Assembly: GCF_900105615.1 (NCBI RefSeq)
Contig: NZ_LT630003.1
Span: 1,860,001-1,924,000, forward strand
Origin: Lacrimispora sphenoides JCM 1415
Lineage (GTDB): Bacteria > Bacillota > Clostridia > Lachnospirales > Lachnospiraceae
Reading direction: 5' to 3'
DNA: 64,000 nucleotides
Each line of letters opens with the position of its first letter. The first letter of the stretch is position 1. Shown in pieces: positions 50,022-56,632 of this stretch. The translations under genes were made by a program, and so were the position numbers. Under the pieces are notes generated by a model. It was not told where the DNA came from. It saw nothing but the letters and a program-made list of their open reading frames with translations, and searched no databases.

Positions 50022-50387
50022 TTAAATACAATTCTTTTTAAGTTCGTCTCTCAACCGCTCCAAAGCCTTTTTTTCCAGCCTGGATACGTAGGATCTGGAG
50101 ATTCCCATGACATCCGCGATCTCCCGCTGCGTATACTCTTTTCCTCCATGCAGACCGTACCTCATTCCGATTATGGTTTTTTCATTTTCCTTAAGACAAC
50201 TGTCAAAGGCCTCATACAGTTCCTTAATATCCTGTTTTAAAATAATAGATTCCAGAGTCTCCTTATTTTCCATTTCAATGACATCTACTAAACTTACAGT
50301 CTCTCCATCCTTGTCTACGCCGATGGGTTCAAACAAAGAAACCTCTTTTGAATATTTCTTGTTCGCACGAAGAAGCATTAGGATTTC
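50022..50387 (-). CDS. sigK: sigK 3' half: sigma-K regions 3-4 (interrupted gene)
   Basis: This encodes the C-terminal 121 residues of the late mother-cell sigma factor sigma-K. Readable blocks are EILMLLRANKK at the junction, SLFEPIG, the region 3-4 linker and the region 4.2 helix-turn-helix YTQREIADVMGISRSYVSRLEKKAL. It has no start codon or ribosome site of its own. The open frame continues upstream to 50519 only as an out-of-frame shadow of the recombinase gene. It becomes a working gene only when joined to 56268-56534 by excision of the intervening 5,880 bp. The recombinase stop codon (50386-50388) overlaps its first bases. Confidence 0.93.
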   Translation of the reverse strand, partial: EILMLLRANKKYSKEVSLFEPIGVDKDGETVSLVDVIEMENKETLESIILKQDIKELYEAFDSCLKENEKTIIGMRYGLHGGKEYTQREIADVMGISRSYVSRLEKKALERLRDELKKNCI

Positions 50388-50390
50388 ATT
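50379..50390 (-). other. Attachment site (recombinase end) of the sigK element
   Basis: Plus-strand TAGGATTTCATT shares 10 of 12 bases with 56259-56270 (TAGGATACCATT). Exchange within CATT (AATG on the coding strand) restores the conserved Glu codon of sigma-K. Confidence 0.8.
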
Positions 50391-52071
50391 TGCTAGAGTC
50401 ACCTTGCGGCTCTGGTAATTCAGGCACCTTCGAGCCAAACAGGTACAGATGAACATTCTCTCCATCCCATATGACCTTATCCACAAATGTACGGACTGCC
50501 GCCCGTCTTTGCCGGACATCCATAAGGCCGATCACCTGTTGAAAGGAAGACAGGGTCTGCTTAATGAACTGTAATTCTGTATCGGAAAGCTCTTTATTTT
50601 CTGTGTTAAGGGAAAGCTCCCATAACCGCCGCTCCATTTCCCCTTTTCTTTTATGGAGTCCTTCGATTTGCTGTATGATATATCCTTCTGCCCCGGTTCC
50701 TCCGGCTTTTCCAAGGGAGGCCGCCAGTCCGGTTATTTCTCCTTCCATATTCTTCAGTTCATCCTTTAAACGGGATATATCCCATTCCGCTTCCTCCTTG
50801 CTTTCTTCCACTGCCTTTTTGCTCCGGCAAAGCTGCTTTTGAAATTCACTCCAATCCACAGATATCTTTTTGATTTCCTCCAAGACCATCTGATCCAGCA
50901 TATTTCCATTAACATTCTTCATTCCGCAGCATTTCATACGACTTTTTTCCTTCATGGTGCATAAATAAGAATAGATCTGTTCCCCTTCGTCATTGTACCG
51001 GCCGGACAGCTTTGGCCGCATATAACCGCCGCAGCCGCCGCAAAAGAGGATTCCAGACAGCAACGCCACATTACTGCGGGGTTTCCGGTAATTTTTTGAT
51101 TTATTCTGGTCCAGCTGCAGCTGAACCTTGACCCACATGGAGCCAGAAATCACTCCTTTATGCTTTCCAACTGCCACGATCCATTCTTCCATATCTTTCA
51201 ACTCGTGAGTTTTTCCGGCCCTTTGAAGGGTACGGTTATACGCAATCACCCCATGGTTTCCGTCAAAGGCTTCTCTTTCTGCAAAAAGATCCACGTTCTT
51301 TTCCCTTAAATACTCATAGGCTTCCTGATCTGCAATCATATAAACCGGATTGGTCAATATTCCTTTTATCGCAAAACGGCTGAATAAGCGGCCATATTTT
51401 GTCCTATGACCATTCTGGAGCAAATAGGTTTCCGTCTGAGTCAGCGATCCTGTCTCTAAGAATTTTTCGTAAATCACCTTGATTAGATTTGCCTCATCCG
51501 GAATCATCTTAAGCTTAAATGCTTTTTTCACCTTCCCGTCTATGGTCACAGAGGACACGCTCTCCGACGTATAACCCGTAGGAGTATTTCCTCCCAGCCA
51601 TCTTCCGCTTTTGGAGAGCTCCAGCATATTATCCCGGATGCGTTCCGCGATTGTCTCTCTCTCCAACTGAGAGAAAACAGAAGCAATGTACATCATGGCC
51701 CGCCCCATGGGAGAGGATGTGTCAAATTGCTCTTTTATGGAGATAAAGGAAATATGAAGTTCATTAAGCTCTTCAATCAGATTTGCAAAATCACCGATAT
51801 TACGGCTTATCCGGTCAAGACGGTAGCATACCACCGCCGTAAATTTCTTCTTTTTTGCTTCCTGCATCATGACTTTAAACTGAGGCCGTTCAAGGTTTCC
51901 TCCGGAGAACCCCTCATCCTCATATACACAGGCGCTGTCAACGAAACACGCTCCATAATGTGTGGTAATGTATTGTCTGCACAGCTCGATCTGGTTTCCG
52001 ATGCTCTCTCCTTTTCCGGTAAATTTTGATTTTCTTGAATAAATTGCAAACCGCTCTTTCCCGGCTTCCAC
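50386..52071 (-). CDS. spoIVCA: Large serine recombinase (SpoIVCA-like), excises the sigK element
   Basis: A 561-residue site-specific recombinase. The resolvase domain (about 7-150) has the nucleophilic Ser12 in YSRKS and the Arg-rich RLDRISRN block (about 83-90). A recombinase domain (about 165-290), a zinc-ribbon (CGGCGGYM with later CC pair, about 350-400), a coiled coil (about 415-500) and a C-terminal tail follow. GTG at 52071 with AAGGAGG 9 bases ahead is the start. Its last codons end in the attachment site, and its TGA lies in the core. This fits the Bacillus SpoIVCA and Clostridioides difficile SpoIVCA group that reassemble sigK in the mother cell. Confidence 0.92.
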   Translation of the reverse strand: MEAGKERFAIYSRKSKFTGKGESIGNQIELCRQYITTHYGACFVDSACVYEDEGFSGGNLERPQFKVMMQEAKKKKFTAVVCYRLDRISRNIGDFANLIEELNELHISFISIKEQFDTSSPMGRAMMYIASVFSQLERETIAERIRDNMLELSKSGRWLGGNTPTGYTSESVSSVTIDGKVKKAFKLKMIPDEANLIKVIYEKFLETGSLTQTETYLLQNGHRTKYGRLFSRFAIKGILTNPVYMIADQEAYEYLREKNVDLFAEREAFDGNHGVIAYNRTLQRAGKTHELKDMEEWIVAVGKHKGVISGSMWVKVQLQLDQNKSKNYRKPRSNVALLSGILFCGGCGGYMRPKLSGRYNDEGEQIYSYLCTMKEKSRMKCCGMKNVNGNMLDQMVLEEIKKISVDWSEFQKQLCRSKKAVEESKEEAEWDISRLKDELKNMEGEITGLAASLGKAGGTGAEGYIIQQIEGLHKRKGEMERRLWELSLNTENKELSDTELQFIKQTLSSFQQVIGLMDVRQRRAAVRTFVDKVIWDGENVHLYLFGSKVPELPEPQGDSSK

Positions 52072-52126
52072 TTAGCCCTTCCTCCTTACTAAAGCATAAT
52101 GCTGCGTTTTGCCCCTTTAATCCTAA

Positions 52127-52156
52127 ACATAGAGGACATGGGAGGCAACATACATT
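52127..52156 (+). promoter_or_regulatory. Sigma-E-like promoter ahead of the 53-codon ORF
   Basis: An ACATA -35-like element (52127-52131) lies 17 bases ahead of CATACATT (52149-52156), close to the sigma-E -10 consensus CATACAAT. This would place expression in the mother cell. The -35 match is partial. Confidence 0.35.
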
Positions 52157-52184
52157 ATAATAACAGTCTATATCAGGTCCGTTT

Positions 52185-52346
52185 ATGAATATGATCGTAT
52201 ATCAGCCCAAAACAGAAGAAGACAGAAAAGAATTGAGAAAAAAAGCTGCACTCCTGCATAGTCAGGCTGTCCTTCAATATATCCAGCAGCTTTCCTGCCC
52301 GAATGACCAAAAACAGGCTCTTATGGAAGAGCTTCACACAACCTGA
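52185..52346 (+). CDS. Small 53-residue protein, candidate recombination directionality factor
   Basis: A 53-codon ORF divergent from the recombinase gene, 113 bases away, overlapping the 3' end of the hydrogenase large-subunit gene by 13 bases. The product is short, charged and predicted helical (EEDRKELRKKAALLHSQAV is its core). No family is recognised. In Clostridioides difficile a small skin-encoded protein acts as directionality factor for sigK excision, and position and size here suggest the same role. The ribosome site (AGGT) is weak, and a second ATG lies at 52191. It may be a chance ORF, but its sequence looks coding. Confidence 0.45.
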   Translation: MNMIVYQPKTEEDRKELRKKAALLHSQAVLQYIQQLSCPNDQKQALMEELHTT

Positions 52347-53710
52347 ATTGTATTCATATACTTCCCGCTTAAGAAAACATGAGTAGCGCAGGACACGCAG
52401 GGATCAAAAGACCGTATGATCCTTCCGATTTCCACAGGCTCTGTTACATCTTTTACAGGTGCCCCCATCAGTGCCTGTTCTCCGGTTCCCTTCATTCCAT
52501 TTGTCTGTGTTGACAGATTCCACGCAGACGGGGTTATGATCTGGTAAAAGGCTATCTTACTGTTGTCAATATACAGCCAATGGCCCAGGGCTCCCCGTGT
52601 CGTATCCACCAGTCCTTTTCCCGATGCCTGAACAGGAATCTCATACTCCCTCTGCATGGATACTCCCGGGATCAGATGATCGATAAGGGTCTGCATAATT
52701 TCCACAATTTTCTTAGCTTCCAGCACTCTTGCAATGGTCCGGTCCATGGCAGAGATCCCGTTTCTGTACTCGCCGGAGAGCCACTGCCTTGCCAACGGCC
52801 CTACCTCATAAGGGATATTATTGTATCTCGGCGCTTTTATCCAGGAATATGCCTGGGGTTTATTTCTGTCCGGTTCATCATTTTCGTTGAACCAGGCGTA
52901 TTCGTCTTCCTGAGTTATAAGGGCAGGATCAAAGGGGGATGTCTGTCCATTAGAATAAACCAGAGGATCCACATAGAGCGTTCCTAAATTTTTATAATGG
53001 TTAAAGCTCCCATAGGAAAGTAAGTTGCCGTAGCCTCCGCCGTAATGATAATACTCCGGATAAAAGGTTCCGATTGTGTATACGTCCGGAACCATTTTTT
53101 CAATGATAAACTGTCCAATGTCATATAGGATAGATTTTATGGTAATGATCTTATCTGCTGAGATCGGCGAAGTGATCCCTCCAATGAATATTCCGTGATT
53201 ATGAGGAACTTTTCCTCCAAGAATGGCCAGCATCTGATGCGCAGCCCTGCTGAACTGAAGGGATTCAAAGTAATCGTTTACCATTTTATCGTTTATGTCC
53301 TTTGGAAGCCTGTAATCATTGTGATCGGTCTTAAACAGCGGATAATCCTCAGGAAGCTTTACAAAATCCGGCAAGGTAAACTGGTAAAAATGTCTTAAAT
53401 GATTTTGAAGGAACTCGCAGGCATGAAGAAGGTCCCTTAAATACCTTCCCTGCTCAGAGGGGACAATGTTCAATGCTTCTTCCAGGGCAAGAGCAGAAGC
53501 CATGGAATGTGCGGTTGAACAGATACCGCAGATGCGCTGTGTAAAATAAACAGCATCAAAAGGACTTCTGCCCTGAAGCATTTTTTCAAATCCACGGAAC
53601 ATCAGGCCTCTCATTTTAGCATCCACCACTGACCGTTCTTCAATATCGGCATCAATTTCCATGAAGCCGCTGATACGGGTCACAGGATTAATGGTTATTC
53701 TCTCCGCCAT
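52334..53710 (-). CDS. [NiFe] hydrogenase large subunit (precursor)
   Basis: A 458-residue catalytic subunit that binds the Ni-Fe(CN)2CO centre and splits or forms H2. The L1 motif RICGICSTAHS puts nickel ligands at C61 and C64. The L2 motif DPCVSCATH gives C438, C441 and H444. Fourteen residues follow H444, the C-terminal extension normally removed by an endopeptidase after cofactor insertion, matching the protease gene of the same operon. GGGG lies ahead of the ATG, and the small-subunit stop is 2 bases upstream. All ligands are intact, so it should be functional if Hyp proteins encoded elsewhere supply the cofactor. Confidence 0.95.
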   Translation of the reverse strand: MAERITINPVTRISGFMEIDADIEERSVVDAKMRGLMFRGFEKMLQGRSPFDAVYFTQRICGICSTAHSMASALALEEALNIVPSEQGRYLRDLLHACEFLQNHLRHFYQFTLPDFVKLPEDYPLFKTDHNDYRLPKDINDKMVNDYFESLQFSRAAHQMLAILGGKVPHNHGIFIGGITSPISADKIITIKSILYDIGQFIIEKMVPDVYTIGTFYPEYYHYGGGYGNLLSYGSFNHYKNLGTLYVDPLVYSNGQTSPFDPALITQEDEYAWFNENDEPDRNKPQAYSWIKAPRYNNIPYEVGPLARQWLSGEYRNGISAMDRTIARVLEAKKIVEIMQTLIDHLIPGVSMQREYEIPVQASGKGLVDTTRGALGHWLYIDNSKIAFYQIITPSAWNLSTQTNGMKGTGEQALMGAPVKDVTEPVEIGRIIRSFDPCVSCATHVFLSGKYMNTIQVV

Positions 53711-53712
53711 AT

Positions 53713-54687
53713 TTACTCCCCTCTCATGGTGTCATAGGTGATAAAAGGCTCCATTGCATCAGGAAATCCAAACTGAGCACAGCCGATGCAGGGCGAATCG
53801 CCTCCTATGGGCCAGTTGACATGCCCGTTCCATTGGCGAATGGGGCAGTCGATCTGGGTAACCGGACCTTTACAGCCCATCATAAACATACAGGTTTCCT
53901 GTCCGAGCTTCGTTGCAAAGATGCCGCTGTCAAAATATGATCTCCTTGGACATCTGTCGTGAATGGTAATGCTGTAAAACATCAAGGGACGGTCCCTGCT
54001 ATCAAGCGGGGGTTCCCCATATAATATCAGATATGCCAAAGTGCCCATAAACCAGTCCGGATGACATGGACAGCCTGTTAATTTAATCACTTTTCTCTGC
54101 AAAACCTCCTGCACTCCCACACACTGAGTCGGATTGGGCCTTGCCGCCGACACGCCTCCGTGGGAAGCGCAGGCTCCCACGGCAATCACATGGGCCGCCT
54201 GTTCTCCCAGTCTTTTAACCGCCTCATATCCGGTAATCTCCCTGCCGTTGTGCCGGCCGATGACGTTATAAGAACCATTGTCTTTTAAAGATACTGCACC
54301 TTCCACAGCAAGGATATAATCACTGCCTATCACATCGAACAACTGATCCATGGCCTTGCTTCCATAAGAATTCATCAGGCTGTTGCTGTATATAAAATTG
54401 GTCATTTGAGTGAGCAGATACTTAAAATCCGGATTTTGCCCGTCCAAAAGGGAGATGGTATTACCAGTGCAGCCATTTAATTCAAGCCAGACAAGATTCC
54501 GCTTTTGCCGCGTCTCACCGGCGATTTCATCCCTTACCCTGTTCACAAGACTTTCCGTTGTTTTCAGCCTGCTTTCCTGATAAGGACATTCAAAGCTTCC
54601 GTAATCCAAATGTTTCACCAACTTTACTCTGTAGCCAAATAGCCGATGATCGGTAATCTGGTCAGGACCAATGCTCCCGGATGACAT
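53713..54687 (-). CDS. [NiFe] hydrogenase small subunit, without Tat signal
   Basis: A 324-residue electron-transfer subunit. Cluster-ligand motifs in order are LNGCTGN, GACASHGG, GCPCHPDW (proximal/distal ligands), a CPRRSYFDSG block, CMFMMGCKGP and CIGCAQFGFPD. The arrangement resembles the uptake-type small subunits, with three Fe-S clusters. There is no N-terminal twin-arginine signal, so the enzyme should stay in the cytoplasm, and no C-terminal membrane helix is seen. The ATG at 54687 overlaps the cytochrome b5-like gene by 64 bases with a poor ribosome site. A GTG at 54618 just after that gene's stop is an alternative giving 301 residues. Confidence 0.92.
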   Translation of the reverse strand: MSSGSIGPDQITDHRLFGYRVKLVKHLDYGSFECPYQESRLKTTESLVNRVRDEIAGETRQKRNLVWLELNGCTGNTISLLDGQNPDFKYLLTQMTNFIYSNSLMNSYGSKAMDQLFDVIGSDYILAVEGAVSLKDNGSYNVIGRHNGREITGYEAVKRLGEQAAHVIAVGACASHGGVSAARPNPTQCVGVQEVLQRKVIKLTGCPCHPDWFMGTLAYLILYGEPPLDSRDRPLMFYSITIHDRCPRRSYFDSGIFATKLGQETCMFMMGCKGPVTQIDCPIRQWNGHVNWPIGGDSPCIGCAQFGFPDAMEPFITYDTMRGE

Positions 54688-55094
54688 GTTGCAAAATTAA
54701 CTGATAAATCATTTCCGGGATTAAGACCAAAATGGCTGTCTCCTTTCCAGACGGAATTATTTGTCACGTCATACACCACTCCGTTTACCGCTACATAAGC
54801 CGGAGCTCCGTTTTTTCCATTGTATCGGGATAACTCTTCCAGGGTAAAGTATCTTGGAACTTCCTCCTCAGCTTGATTTGCATGGATGTTCTGATATGGA
54901 TACTGTGTTTCTTCCATATCCGCTTGATTTGACTGGCTAAAATATTTGATATGACTTTCCAGCATAAACACTTCACTGCTCAAATGATCCAACACAACGC
55001 TATTGTTGTACTGGTTGGAATGAAGTCTCTCTATATCCTCGTTCATGTGCTTGATGCAGTTCCCGATATAATTCAAAAACATATTTAATTCCAT
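54624..55094 (-). CDS. Cytochrome b5-like heme-binding domain protein
   Basis: A 156-residue soluble protein. The first 75 residues are a helical, polar segment of no known family. Residues 82-155 form a cytochrome b5-like domain (FTLEELSRYNG, AYVAVNGVVYDVT) with probable axial ligands His121 (GDSHFG) and His138 (CHPG). GGGAGG 7 bases ahead sets the start at 55094. Sitting between maturation and structural hydrogenase genes, it is a plausible electron acceptor or donor for the small subunit in place of a membrane cytochrome b. That role is inference. Confidence 0.82.
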   Translation of the reverse strand: MELNMFLNYIGNCIKHMNEDIERLHSNQYNNSVVLDHLSSEVFMLESHIKYFSQSNQADMEETQYPYQNIHANQAEEEVPRYFTLEELSRYNGKNGAPAYVAVNGVVYDVTNNSVWKGDSHFGLNPGNDLSVNFATCHPGALVLTRLPIIGYLATE

Positions 55095-55160
55095 GAAATA
55101 ACCTCCCATAATAAAATACTGAATGATTGATATTTTTACCGGACAACAGTCAGGCCTTTC

Positions 55161-55418
55161 TCATTGCGATATCTCACCTTCAATTTCATCTATAACCGCA
55201 GTAAGCGGCTCTATTTCCCGTTTAAGAACCTGTATGTTTGTCCAGTCTCCAATCAGCGTATTATTTCTTTCTGAAAAATAGTCACGGATGCTGTCTTCAC
55301 TTATATGGCTGTTTGTATGTACTGTAATTGTCAAATAAAAAATCTTCTCAATGAAATTCTCCCCGCATATTTCGACAATTGCTTCATATATATTCTGATT
55401 TAGGAACGTATCATGCAT
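55161..55418 (-). CDS. Hydrogenase-operon protein of unknown function (85 residues)
   Basis: An 85-residue acidic protein with a predicted beta-alpha-beta pattern (FYLTITVHTN, then a helix, then IQVLKREIEPL). It has only one cysteine and no CxxC, so it is not HypA or HypC. It overlaps the protease gene by 8 bases and has GGAGG, so it is translated with it. Its fixed place between the maturation protease and the cytochrome gene suggests an accessory role in hydrogenase assembly or electron transfer. I do not recognise a family. Confidence 0.75.
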   Translation of the reverse strand: MHDTFLNQNIYEAIVEICGENFIEKIFYLTITVHTNSHISEDSIRDYFSERNNTLIGDWTNIQVLKREIEPLTAVIDEIEGEISQ

Positions 55419-55872
55419 TAGTGATTTCCTCCGATATGATTTTTTTTATTGCGCATTCAATTACCCTGCAGATCTGGGGCAGTTTATCCCTTAAAACAGT
55501 GCTTAGTTCCTGGCCAAAGCCGATTTCGCAGATTTCTATGCCCATCAGGTACCCTTTAAATGGACAGCCATATAGCTTCATGAGTTCCACCATACTCAAA
55601 TCATGCTGCATGGAGAATAAGGAAGGCTGTGACATCACATCTTCAAGGCTGGTCAGATGAACGCTTCCCGGCTCCGCTCCAGAAGAAAGTGCATCAAGGA
55701 TGAAAATAAAGTCACCCTTATCTAGTAAATAAAAGCAGTTTTGAAAATCGGTTTCACCAATGATCACATGAATATCCTGGCGGATCAGCCGGTCTTCCAA
55801 GATTTCGGCAGCTTTAATTGCTATGGCGTCATCCTTCATAAAACGATTGCCGATAGCAACTAACTTCACCAT
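55411..55872 (-). CDS. Hydrogenase maturation endopeptidase (HyaD/HybD family, M52)
   Basis: A 153-residue protease that cleaves the C-terminal extension of the hydrogenase large subunit. Nickel-sensing residues align with the family: acidic D15 in the N-terminal GNRFMKDDA loop (usually Glu), D60 in ILDALSSG and H90 in MQHDLS. AAGGGGG precedes the ATG. It is the first gene of the five-gene hydrogenase operon and matches the 14-residue extension of the large subunit. Confidence 0.9.
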   Translation of the reverse strand: MVKLVAIGNRFMKDDAIAIKAAEILEDRLIRQDIHVIIGETDFQNCFYLLDKGDFIFILDALSSGAEPGSVHLTSLEDVMSQPSLFSMQHDLSMVELMKLYGCPFKGYLMGIEICEIGFGQELSTVLRDKLPQICRVIECAIKKIISEEITNA

Positions 55873-55907
55873 ACCCTTGCCCCCTTCTCAAAATTGTTAT
55901 TTATCAA

Positions 55908-55935
55908 TATATATGTTGGACAAATTTAAATATTC
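55908..55935 (-). promoter_or_regulatory. Sigma-E-like promoter of the hydrogenase operon
   Basis: On the minus strand GAATATT (55929-55935), 13-base spacer, CATATATA (55908-55915). The -35 and spacing fit sigma-E well; the -10 keeps the CATA half only. No better sigma-A pair is visible in the gap 55873-56020. Confidence 0.4.
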
Positions 55936-56020
55936 TTTTCCGGGGGATTATTGGCGGAAAGGTAACTGCATTTCTGATTCATGACTGAAAAATATGGATG
56001 ATTATGCTTTGCTCACATAA

Positions 56021-56179
56021 ACTTTAGATATTGCAAAGCAGAATTCAACTGCAGCCGGGGAGGTCAACCGGTCTATGGAGGAGGAAGCCGATGTGTTAGA
56101 AGAGATTACAGCTTCCAGCGACATTTTATCCGGTCTCGCCGAAGATTTACATGATATGATCTTAGAATTTAATATATAA
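56021..56179 (+). pseudogene. Methyl-accepting chemotaxis protein, 3' remnant
   Basis: An open stretch of 52 codons ending in TAA encodes the last part of a chemotaxis receptor signalling domain (IAKQNSTAAGEVNRSM, EEITASSDILSGLAEDLHDM). It begins abruptly after a stop codon with no start or ribosome site, and no upstream receptor sequence is seen in other frames. It is the decayed tail of a larger gene, left inside the element on the opposite strand to the cargo. Confidence 0.7.
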
Positions 56180-56184
56180 ACGTC

Positions 56185-56229
56185 AGGAACCGGTGTATGC
56201 TCTGCTGCTGCAGGCATACACCGGTTCCT
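56185..56229. terminator. Hairpin after the chemotaxis-receptor remnant
   Basis: A perfect 16-bp pairing of 56185-56200 with 56214-56229 around a 13-base loop. It sits 6 bases after the remnant's stop and 30 bases from the attachment site. It may also stop read-through from sigK into the element in unexcised DNA. Confidence 0.85.
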
Positions 56230-56258
56230 TGCTTTCGCCTCGTATGGAGCCGCTATGA

Positions 56259-56270
56259 TAGGATACCATT
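56259..56270 (-). other. Attachment site (sigK 5' end) of the sigK element
   Basis: TAGGATACCATT on the plus strand matches 50379-50390 at 10 of 12 positions. Unexcised, the sigK frame runs on for GILS and stops at 56253-56255. Confidence 0.8.
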
Positions 56271-56534
56271 CTCCACACACTTGGCCGCATAAGTGGCTAG
56301 TCTGGAGCCTCTGTCCGGGTGAAAGGTATTGACGGCTTTTATAAGTCCTATGGTACCTACGGAAAGAAGATCTTCCATATCATAATCTGTATTCTGATAT
56401 TTTTTTGCCACATGTGCCACCAGACGCATATTTCGCTCGATGAGTGTGGCTCTCGCCTCCTGATCCCCTTCCTGGTATCGTTCCAGACACTCTCGTTCTT
56501 CTCGCGCAGTTAAAGGTTTGGGAAAAGTTTTCAA
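56268..56534 (-). CDS. sigK: sigK 5' half: sigma-K region 2 (interrupted gene)
   Basis: This encodes residues 1-89 of sigma-K: TFPKPL at the start, core-binding and -10 recognition region 2 (RLVAHVAKKY, EDLLSVGTIGLIKAVNTF, RLATYAAKCVEN). The start is TTG at 56534 with AAGGTGG 6 bases ahead. In the unexcised state it ends four codons later (56253). Alignment by eye with Bacillus sigma-K starts after the usual pro-sequence of about 20-25 residues, so no inhibitory membrane pro-peptide is encoded. A CATAAAAT box (56564-56571) upstream could be a sigma-E -10. Confidence 0.93.
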
Positions 56535-56632
56535 AGAAAGCCACCTTAAACTTACTTACTCTCATTTTATGCCGGCCTTCTCTTTAAAGTGCTTTTACAA
56601 AAAATATAGGCTGGTACTTATTTTCCTTTCCA

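What the first reader, a model, noticed from the sequence alone, without database searches (positions are those of the whole stretch)
50022..56534. A compact sigK-intervening element whose cargo is a [NiFe] hydrogenase operon
The window contains both halves of sigma-K in the same orientation, 5,880 bp apart. The 5' half (56268-56534) ends at KCVEN and the 3' half (50022-50387) begins EILMLLRANKK. Joining them gives an uninterrupted 210-residue sigma factor, as in Bacillus and Clostridioides difficile, where a skin element is cut out in the mother cell. The interval encodes a large serine recombinase adjacent to the junction. The cargo is not prophage but a complete five-gene [NiFe] hydrogenase unit with all Ni ligands intact. 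Programmed excision would remove the hydrogenase from the mother-cell chromosome while the spore chromosome keeps it. Skin elements are established knowledge; a hydrogenase cargo is, to my knowledge, not described.
Basis: partly seen in the sequence, partly recalled or inferred. Interest (0 to 1): 0.96.

Follow-up and report, generated by a model that had tools for sequence, protein, structure and literature searches.

The report
Hydrogenase-carrying element splitting sigK
In Lacrimispora bacteria the late sporulation gene sigK is cut in two by a small element that carries a recombinase and a hydrogenase gene set, and this element is likely cut out of the mother cell's DNA during spore formation, which would rejoin the gene and discard the hydrogenase from that cell alone.

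Summary
sigK is split by a 5,880-bp element with a serine recombinase and a [NiFe] hydrogenase operon; the 5.3-Mb one-contig genome has no second sigK. It is no assembly error: 0 of 25 Lacrimispora genomes shows an uninterrupted sigK, and all 17 with this hydrogenase carry it in the element. Of 150 family genomes, 93 list an uninterrupted sigK; one besides ours is split. Both sigK parts, recombinase and hydrogenase are under purifying selection. Rejoining leaves traces: a public 210-aa SigK equals the joined parts of one split-sigK species after the start codon, and one draft's contigs stop exactly at the 5-bp core.

New: (1) an antisense 53-62-aa gene beside the recombinase in 19 of 19 complete elements, behind a sigma-E-like promoter in 18: the likely directionality factor; (2) the hydrogenase operon has a sigma-E-like motif in 10 of 10 sigK-resident loci but 1 of 10 others, so it is probably a mother-cell hydrogenase whose gene is then discarded; (3) cargo varies between elements; (4) in four relatives a second serine-recombinase element cuts sigK into three pieces. 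Excision timing and expression remain untested.

The parts
56253..56534 (-). 5' part of sigK (TTG start; coding up to KCVEN, then G-I-L-S and stop beyond attL)
   Evidence: (TIGR02846 positions 24-114)
56267..56270 (-). attL core AATG (shared with attR); predicted crossover here
   Evidence: contig ends in G007 and G017; junction residue E in P0039
56247..56252 (-). CGGCTC, inner arm of attL; inverted partner of GAGCCG in attR
55910..55935 (-). sigma-E-like promoter (GAATATT - CATATA) of the hydrogenase operon (predicted)
55411..55872 (-). hydrogenase maturation protease (HycI/HupD type)
55161..55418 (-). 85-aa hydrogenase-associated protein of unknown role
   Evidence: no family; also beside homologous hydrogenases outside sigK
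54624..55109 (-). cytochrome-b5-like heme/steroid-binding domain protein; kept in all 19 complete elements
53713..54621 (-). [NiFe] hydrogenase small subunit, no twin-arginine signal seen by eye
52334..53710 (-). [NiFe] hydrogenase large subunit
52185..52346 (+). antisense 53-aa ORF, predicted recombination directionality factor
   Evidence: two-helix model
52127..52154 (+). sigma-E-like promoter (ACATA - 17 nt - CATACA) of the 53-aa ORF (predicted)
   Evidence: 18 of 19 elements
50386..52071 (-). large serine recombinase; its TGA stop overlaps the attR core
50407..50412 (-). GAGCCG, inner arm of attR
   Evidence: (GAGCCG or a one-base variant in 19 of 19 elements)
50387..50390 (-). attR core AATG
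50022..50387 (-). 3' part of sigK (EILMLLR...)
   Evidence: TIGR02846 positions 112-226

Best explanation
This is a compact sigK-intervening (skin-like) element without phage structural genes whose cargo is a [NiFe] hydrogenase operon, and it is likely excised in the mother cell during sporulation by its large serine recombinase together with a predicted 53-aa directionality factor. Likely steps: (1) in growing cells sigK is split and silent, and because the match starts at model position 24 (no pro-sequence seen), rejoining would be its main checkpoint. (2) After asymmetric division sigma-E would transcribe the hydrogenase operon and the antisense 53-aa ORF from conserved sigma-E-like promoters in the mother cell. 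(3) The small protein would turn the recombinase to excision: crossover in AATG joins KCVEN to EILMLLR and releases a 5,880-bp circle. (4) Sigma-K would then run the late programme; the terminal mother cell would have used and lost the hydrogenase gene from its chromosome while the forespore keeps the whole element. Shown: the split, the genes, their conservation, the joined protein in public data, and contig breaks at the core. Inferred: recombinase and small-protein roles, cell type, timing, and hydrogenase expression. The confidence given is for the first sentence; step 2 for the hydrogenase is weaker (see the section on the most novel reading).
For: Same break across the genus: both parts on one contig in 19 of 25 genomes, on different contigs in 3 (G007, G015, G017), only the 5' part listed in 2 (G001, G016), none in 1 (G010, 67% complete); uninterrupted in 0 of 25. 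Of 150 family genomes, 93 list a near full-length sigK match in one piece (5 of these with one stop flagged in the match), plus G151 interrupted only by masked bases; G000 and G049 are split, 10 give weaker hits only, 44 none. NG86 dN/dS, 15 pairs, saturated ones without value: sigK5 0.00-0.04, sigK3 0.00-0.05, recombinase 0.05-0.12, small ORF 0.02-0.28, hydL 0.05-0.11. P0039 (210 aa, 22.2-kb contig) equals G018's two parts apart from the TTG initiator, and has E where G018's attL reads G, placing the crossover in AATG. G007: sigK5 contig end, element contig start and end, and sigK3 contig start all stop at AATGA, as expected if attL, attR, attB and attP all occur in the reads. Small ORF: 19 of 19 complete elements; its promoter motif 18 of 19. 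ATA-N-CATA motif upstream of the protease gene: 10 of 10 sigK-resident loci, 1 of 10 others. hypF, hypD and hypE-like genes elsewhere in the genome. C. difficile precedents: an RDF under sigma-E/SpoIIID and a sigma-K without pro-sequence (PMC5025042, passages), and a sigma-E-activated, SpoIIID-repressed hydrogenase (PMC3789822, passages).
Against: No assembled attB or attP in 25 genus genomes and no attP in viral contigs. P0039's source is not named; it could come from a strain that lacks the element. The sigma-E motifs are consensus matches chosen after seeing alignments; the loose form occurs 16 times in the 64 kb, both strands; L054-L056 lack the second motif and L047 the first. The 10 sigK-resident loci are kin, so they are not 10 independent tests. 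The hydrogenase is dispensable: absent from 5 of 19 complete elements, and G020's large subunit has an in-frame TGA. G017, 82% complete, has hydL but no hypD found. The small protein has no family and no fold match. In G049, which has the same type of recombinase and att motif, a pattern search found no homologue of the small ORF.
Confidence: 0.8

Rival explanations
1. A sigK element that works like skin, but with the hydrogenase as an ordinary vegetative passenger: sigK is merely a safe, vertically inherited landing site and excision has nothing to do with hydrogenase use.
For: Other cargo (alpha-galactosidase) has by eye a TATAAT upstream in 4 of 4 elements looked at; cargo turns over and the hydrogenase is missing from 5 of 19 complete elements.
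Against: The sigma-E-like motif is upstream of the protease gene in 10 of 10 sigK-resident loci and 1 of 10 homologous operons elsewhere; in the 2.7-kb elements L046 and L047 a similar motif precedes the remaining cytochrome-b5 gene.
Confidence: 0.35
2. The element is fixed and no longer excised; sigK is a pseudogene or its parts act separately, and the lineage makes spores another way or not at all.
For: No assembled attB in 25 genomes.
Against: Both parts have dN/dS of at most 0.05 where measurable, with 97-100% (5' part) and 91-100% (3' part) identity to the window's in 18 loci; recombinase and att motifs are conserved; joined SigK proteins exist; contigs break at the core in G007 and G017.
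Confidence: 0.06
3. Excision works, but the 53-aa antisense ORF is not the directionality factor; the cytochrome-b5-domain protein, the only other cargo gene present in every complete element, or a host protein does that.
For: The cytochrome-b5 protein is in 19 of 19 complete elements, even those without hydrogenase; no homologue of the small ORF was found in G049 by a pattern search.
Against: The cytochrome-b5 protein is also found beside homologous hydrogenases far from any sigK, so it likely came with the hydrogenase; the small ORF resembles known RDFs in size, closeness to the recombinase and sigma-E-like control (PMC5025042, PMC6957869, passages).
Confidence: 0.25
4. Assembly or binning error placed a hydrogenase cluster between the two parts of sigK.
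For: None found.
Against: One-contig genome; 13 further genomes have both sigK parts around the hydrogenase on one contig, at 76-99% identity of the large subunit, and 3 more have it linked to the recombinase.
Confidence: 0.01

Closest known systems
skinCd of Clostridioides difficile (CD1231 recombinase, CD1234 RDF)
   Same: Interrupts sigK; large serine recombinase; small sigma-E-controlled RDF inside the element; sigma-K without pro-sequence (PMC5025042, passages).
   Different: skinCd is prophage-like with 19 genes; here 2.7-11.5 kb, without phage structural genes found in the window's element, with metabolic cargo. CD1234 was not compared by sequence.
skin of Bacillus subtilis (SpoIVCA, Skr)
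   Same: sigK rejoined by a large serine recombinase; Skr is a 64-aa RDF next to the recombinase gene, under sigma-E (PMC6957869, passages).
   Different: Defective prophage; skr overlaps the start of spoIVCA in the same direction, here the small ORF is antisense and upstream. PMC5025042 says skinBs and skinCd integrated independently.
gin element in gerE of Bacillus cereus ATCC10987
   Same: Non-phage gene-intervening element, serine recombinase GirC plus extra factor GirX, predicted AA crossover (PMC5595907, abstract and Discussion read).
   Different: Target is gerE; three recombinases; hydrogenase not mentioned in what I read. The second sigK element in G002, G015, G022 and G023 also has three.
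Clostridial [NiFe] hydrogenases with RICGICSTAH and DPCxSCATH motifs
   Same: Same motifs; the C. beijerinckii cluster peaks in stationary phase (PMC6362236, passages); homologues with the cytochrome-b5 gene in many Bacillota.
   Different: 70 of the 80 homologous loci held are not beside this recombinase or a matching sigK part; 1 of the 10 non-sigK loci with the protease gene upstream has the sigma-E-like motif.

Membership tests
sigK-intervening (skin) element | Element lies inside the sigK coding sequence, both parts in one orientation, joinable to one ORF | tested here: met
sigK-intervening (skin) element | Encodes a site-specific recombinase next to a junction | tested here: met
   serine recombinase ending in attR
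sigK-intervening (skin) element | Short shared core with inverted arms at both ends; precise joined product exists | tested here: met
   AATG core and GAGCCG/CGGCTC arms; joined SigK P0039 equals G018's parts; no joined form found for the window's own strain
sigK-intervening (skin) element | Excision confined to the mother cell during sporulation | not testable with these tools
   needs wet-lab timing
sigK-intervening (skin) element | RDF under mother-cell control | tested here: inconclusive
   candidate ORF with sigma-E-like promoter; activity untested
prophage-like skin | Phage genes beyond the recombinase inside the element | tested here: not met
   PHROGs on 7 proteins: only the recombinase has a named phage function (integrase); the two hydrogenase subunits match families of unknown function, four proteins none
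Group 1 [NiFe] hydrogenase | Both Ni-binding CxxC motifs in the large subunit | tested here: met
   RICGIC, DPCVSCATH invariant in 12 of 12 rows
Group 1 [NiFe] hydrogenase | Small subunit with Fe-S domain and C-terminal domain | tested here: met
   PF01058, PF14720; one proximal-cluster Cys position is Asn
Group 1 [NiFe] hydrogenase | Twin-arginine export signal on the small subunit (usual in the group; recalled) | tested here: not met
   N-terminus read by eye, no RRxFxK; so likely cytoplasmic
Group 1 [NiFe] hydrogenase | Maturation genes available | tested here: met
   protease in operon; hypD, hypF and a hypE-like gene elsewhere in the genome

The most novel reading that the evidence does not exclude
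Lacrimispora has made a disposable metabolic gene set: a hydrogenase cluster captured by a sigK element was rewired to a sigma-E promoter, so it is made only in the mother cell in the interval before its own gene is cut out, and the same sigma factor fires both the enzyme and the excision switch. Some relatives stack a second, distinct serine-recombinase element in the same gene, so that sigma-K needs two successive excisions.
Probability: 0.42. Interest if true: 0.88.

Novelty: new variant of a known kind. Interest (0 to 1): 0.78.

Why it matters
It would show that programmed DNA excision in spore formers is not only a relic of phages but a genus-wide vehicle for host metabolic genes, and that a cell doomed to die can carry enzymes whose genes it then discards. 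It gives a compact natural excision system (recombinase, 53-aa candidate directionality factor, att sites) shared by a genus, with intact-sigK outgroups for comparison, and four genomes in which sigK is in three pieces. It makes the question of what skin elements are good for testable: compare hydrogenase-bearing, hydrogenase-free and doubly interrupted species. In the open-access library, searches showed among their listed titles and abstract starts (capped lists) no paper on a hydrogenase in a sigK element or on split sigK in Lacrimispora; (sigK with NiFe hydrogenase) found 0 papers. Most subscription papers are not held.

Tried and rejected
Assembled empty site or circle: attB and attP patterns in 25 genus genomes, 0 matches each (the attB pattern does not cover every codon variant, and the attP pattern only elements with ATAGCAAATG, which leaves out the window's own CTAGCAAATG); attP in viral contigs, 0. 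P0039 sought in viral contigs and plasmids: only sigma factors at most 52% identical among the rows listed, so its contig was not recovered. Cytochrome-b5 protein as directionality factor: considered because it is universal in the elements; set behind the small ORF because it also occurs beside hydrogenases far from sigK. Sigma-70 scan of the element: 17 sites against 13.4 expected, uninformative. Foldseek of the small protein: nothing at E <= 0.001. hypD as a proof of hydrogenase use: only partly informative, since G001, G002, G022 and G023 have hypD without hydL.

Rows dropped: the recombinase tree had 22 genus rows and G049; G001, G010 and G016 were not given. Its large-subunit tree had 17 sigK-resident and 16 of the 70 other fetched rows. 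In one search, 67 of the 80 fetched loci were examined (20 with the protease gene upstream, 47 with the cytochrome-b5 gene first, of which 3 had the motif, 1.28 expected); 13 lacked the gene order or enough upstream sequence. Expectations there came from single-base shuffles. Of 5,034 proteins, the 120 listed were seen. In one search my attL regular expression was mis-spaced and matched 0 of 19; attL is taken from the printed rows.
Full report
Observation. The window lies in a one-contig 5.3-Mb genome. Seven of the ten named sigK-linked loci are called Lacrimispora, so I take the genus as Lacrimispora, family Lachnospiraceae. sigK is in two parts on the minus strand with a 5,880-bp element between them. 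Reading from sigK5 to sigK3 the element holds: maturation protease, 85-aa protein, cytochrome-b5-domain protein, hydrogenase small subunit, large subunit, then an antisense 53-aa ORF, then the serine recombinase running into attR. No other sigK was found in the genome; the only full-length hit is SigE behind a SpoIIGA-like ORF.

Genus survey. The joined protein was used against 25 genus genomes. Both parts are on one contig in 19, on separate contigs in 3, only the 5' part is listed in 2, none in 1 (67% complete). No genome shows an uninterrupted sigK. Element sizes run from 2.66 to 11.5 kb. Of the 19 complete elements (window plus L039-L056), 14 carry the hydrogenase; 5 (G002, G011, G012, G022, G023) do not, yet keep recombinase and cytochrome-b5 gene. 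The large subunit occurs once in each of 17 of 25 genomes. All 17 copies belong to a sigK element: 14 between both sigK parts, G015 and G017 beside one part and the recombinase, and G007 on an element contig with the recombinase.

Outside the genus. Of 150 family genomes, 93 list a near full-length sigK match in one piece (5 with one stop flagged in the match), and G151 is interrupted only by masked bases. G000 and G049 are split; 10 gave weaker hits that I did not resolve; 44 gave none. G049, another genus, has a 5.1-kb element with the same att motif and a 54%-identical recombinase, but its cargo is a response regulator (by eye), a histidine kinase and an exported protein without Pfam match.

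Selection. NG86 dN/dS over 15 pairs (saturated pairs gave no value): sigK5 0.00-0.04, sigK3 0.00-0.05, recombinase 0.05-0.12, small ORF 0.02-0.28, hydL 0.05-0.11, hydS 0.04-0.12; protease (0.13-0.29) and cytochrome-b5 protein (0.04-0.49) are looser. A dead sigK would not look like this.

Rejoining. attL reads GAGAATGGTATCCTATCATAGCGGCTC and attR GAGCCGCAAGGTGACTCTAGCAAATGAAATCC. The arms GAGCCG and CGGCTC would form a 46-bp dyad in the circle centred near AATG (counted by hand). A protein search with the joined SigK gave P0039 (210 aa, on a 22.2-kb contig, source not shown). It equals G018's 5' part apart from the TTG initiator and all 121 residues of its 3' part, while G018's own sigK is split. 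At the junction it has E, coded by attR, where G018's attL codes G; so the crossover lies in AATG, not in the neighbouring ATCCTA. P0073 is a joined relative, not identical, of the G002 group. The contigs of G007 (element contig 7,842 bp, L. defluvii) stop at AATGA at all four ends that meet at the core, which is what an assembly graph holding attL, attR, attB and attP would give. In G017 one contig ends at the same place with a 99-bp overlap to the next. The other fragmented genomes (G001, G015, G016) break elsewhere. These are traces, not timing, and P0039 may come from an element-free strain. No assembled attB or attP was found in 25 genomes.

Candidate directionality factor. An antisense ORF of 53-62 aa upstream of the recombinase is in 19 of 19 complete elements; a database search gave 38 proteins without precomputed Pfam domain. 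AlphaFold gives two helices, pLDDT 87; no solved fold matched. ACATA-17-CATACA with GGACA inside precedes it in 18 of 19. C. difficile sigma-E promoters have ATA at -35 and a -10 like that of sigma-K (PMC3789822, passages; the CATA form of the -10 is recalled). Known RDFs in sigK elements are 72 aa (CD1234) and 64 aa (Skr), sigma-E controlled (PMC5025042, PMC6957869, passages). The role here is inferred.

Hydrogenase regulation. Upstream of the protease gene, GAATATT-13-CATATA is the only exact match of that pattern in the window, 0.02 expected, with the caution that the pattern was chosen after seeing the alignment. A looser form is in 10 of 10 sigK-resident loci and 1 of 10 homologous operons elsewhere; the ten are kin. 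In two hydrogenase-free minimal elements a similar motif precedes the cytochrome-b5 gene; L054-L056 lack it. The loose motif occurs 16 times in the whole window, so only placement and conservation count. C. difficile has a hydrogenase under sigma-E that SpoIIID represses (PMC3789822, passages), and a C. beijerinckii cluster with the same large-subunit motifs peaks in stationary phase (PMC6362236, passages).

Origin. The sigK-resident large subunits form one side of a branch (support 81/96, 79% of bootstrap trees). G019 branches first among them and has hypF, hypC, hypD and a hypE-like gene inside its element, in the place of a 4-5 kb gap seen in several of the nearest non-sigK clusters (their gap was not annotated). 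So one capture of a whole cluster, with later loss or relocation of hyp genes, is likely. The window's genome has hypF, hypD and a hypE-like gene about 580 kb away; hypD is in 21 of 25 genus genomes, 16 of the 17 with hydL.

A second interruption. In G002, G015, G022 and G023 the sigK 3' part is cut again after GISRSY; the last 22 residues lie 7.0-8.4 kb further on, directly after three serine recombinases. In between lie a polysaccharide deacetylase and a BNR-repeat protein, Pfam-checked in G002's L159 only. The two species groups lie apart in the recombinase tree. The window's own sigK is intact there.

Verdict. A real, genus-wide sigK element with hydrogenase cargo and no phage structural genes found in the window's copy; a new variant of a known kind. 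Excision is likely; its control and the use of the hydrogenase are predicted.

Noticed in passing
L159, L160, L161, L162 (G002, G023, G015, G022): sigK is in three pieces: a second element of 7.0-8.4 kb after GISRSY with three tandem serine recombinases and, checked in L159, polysaccharide deacetylase and BNR protein genes.
   Followed up: partly
window 50386-50390 (-): The recombinase's TGA stop overlaps the attR core; in this genome's circle the frame would read on for at least 55 residues, while relatives whose attL reads AATGA would keep the stop.
   Followed up: partly
window 56253-56534 against 50022-50387: The 5' part of sigK has much lower synonymous divergence than the 3' part (for example window-L043 0.25 against 1.25), as if the DNA itself were constrained.
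   Followed up: no
window 53713-54621 and L058-L136: The small subunit reads GC-x-GN where the solved 1frv chain has CTGC; all 48 of 80 loci whose motif was printed share the Asn.
   Followed up: partly
L045, L048, L053, L054, L056: These elements also carry an alpha-galactosidase-like gene at the sigK5 end (Pfam checked in L045 and L053), by eye behind TATAAT in the four looked at; L048 adds an AraC-type regulator.
   Followed up: partly
L148 and L153 (G049): In another genus a 5.1-kb sigK element with the same att motif carries a two-component system and an exported protein without Pfam match.
   Followed up: partly
L041 (G020) and L051 (G024): G020's large subunit has an in-frame TGA and G024's recombinase has a frame break; not mended.
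   Followed up: no
window about 56002-56180 (+): By eye, the tail of a methyl-accepting chemotaxis protein gene remains next to attL, also in L042: perhaps a remnant of older cargo.
   Followed up: no
window about 56560-56620 (-): The block upstream of sigK5 is strongly conserved in the 21 rows aligned, with CAC-17-CATAAAAT in the window resembling a mother-cell promoter.
   Followed up: no
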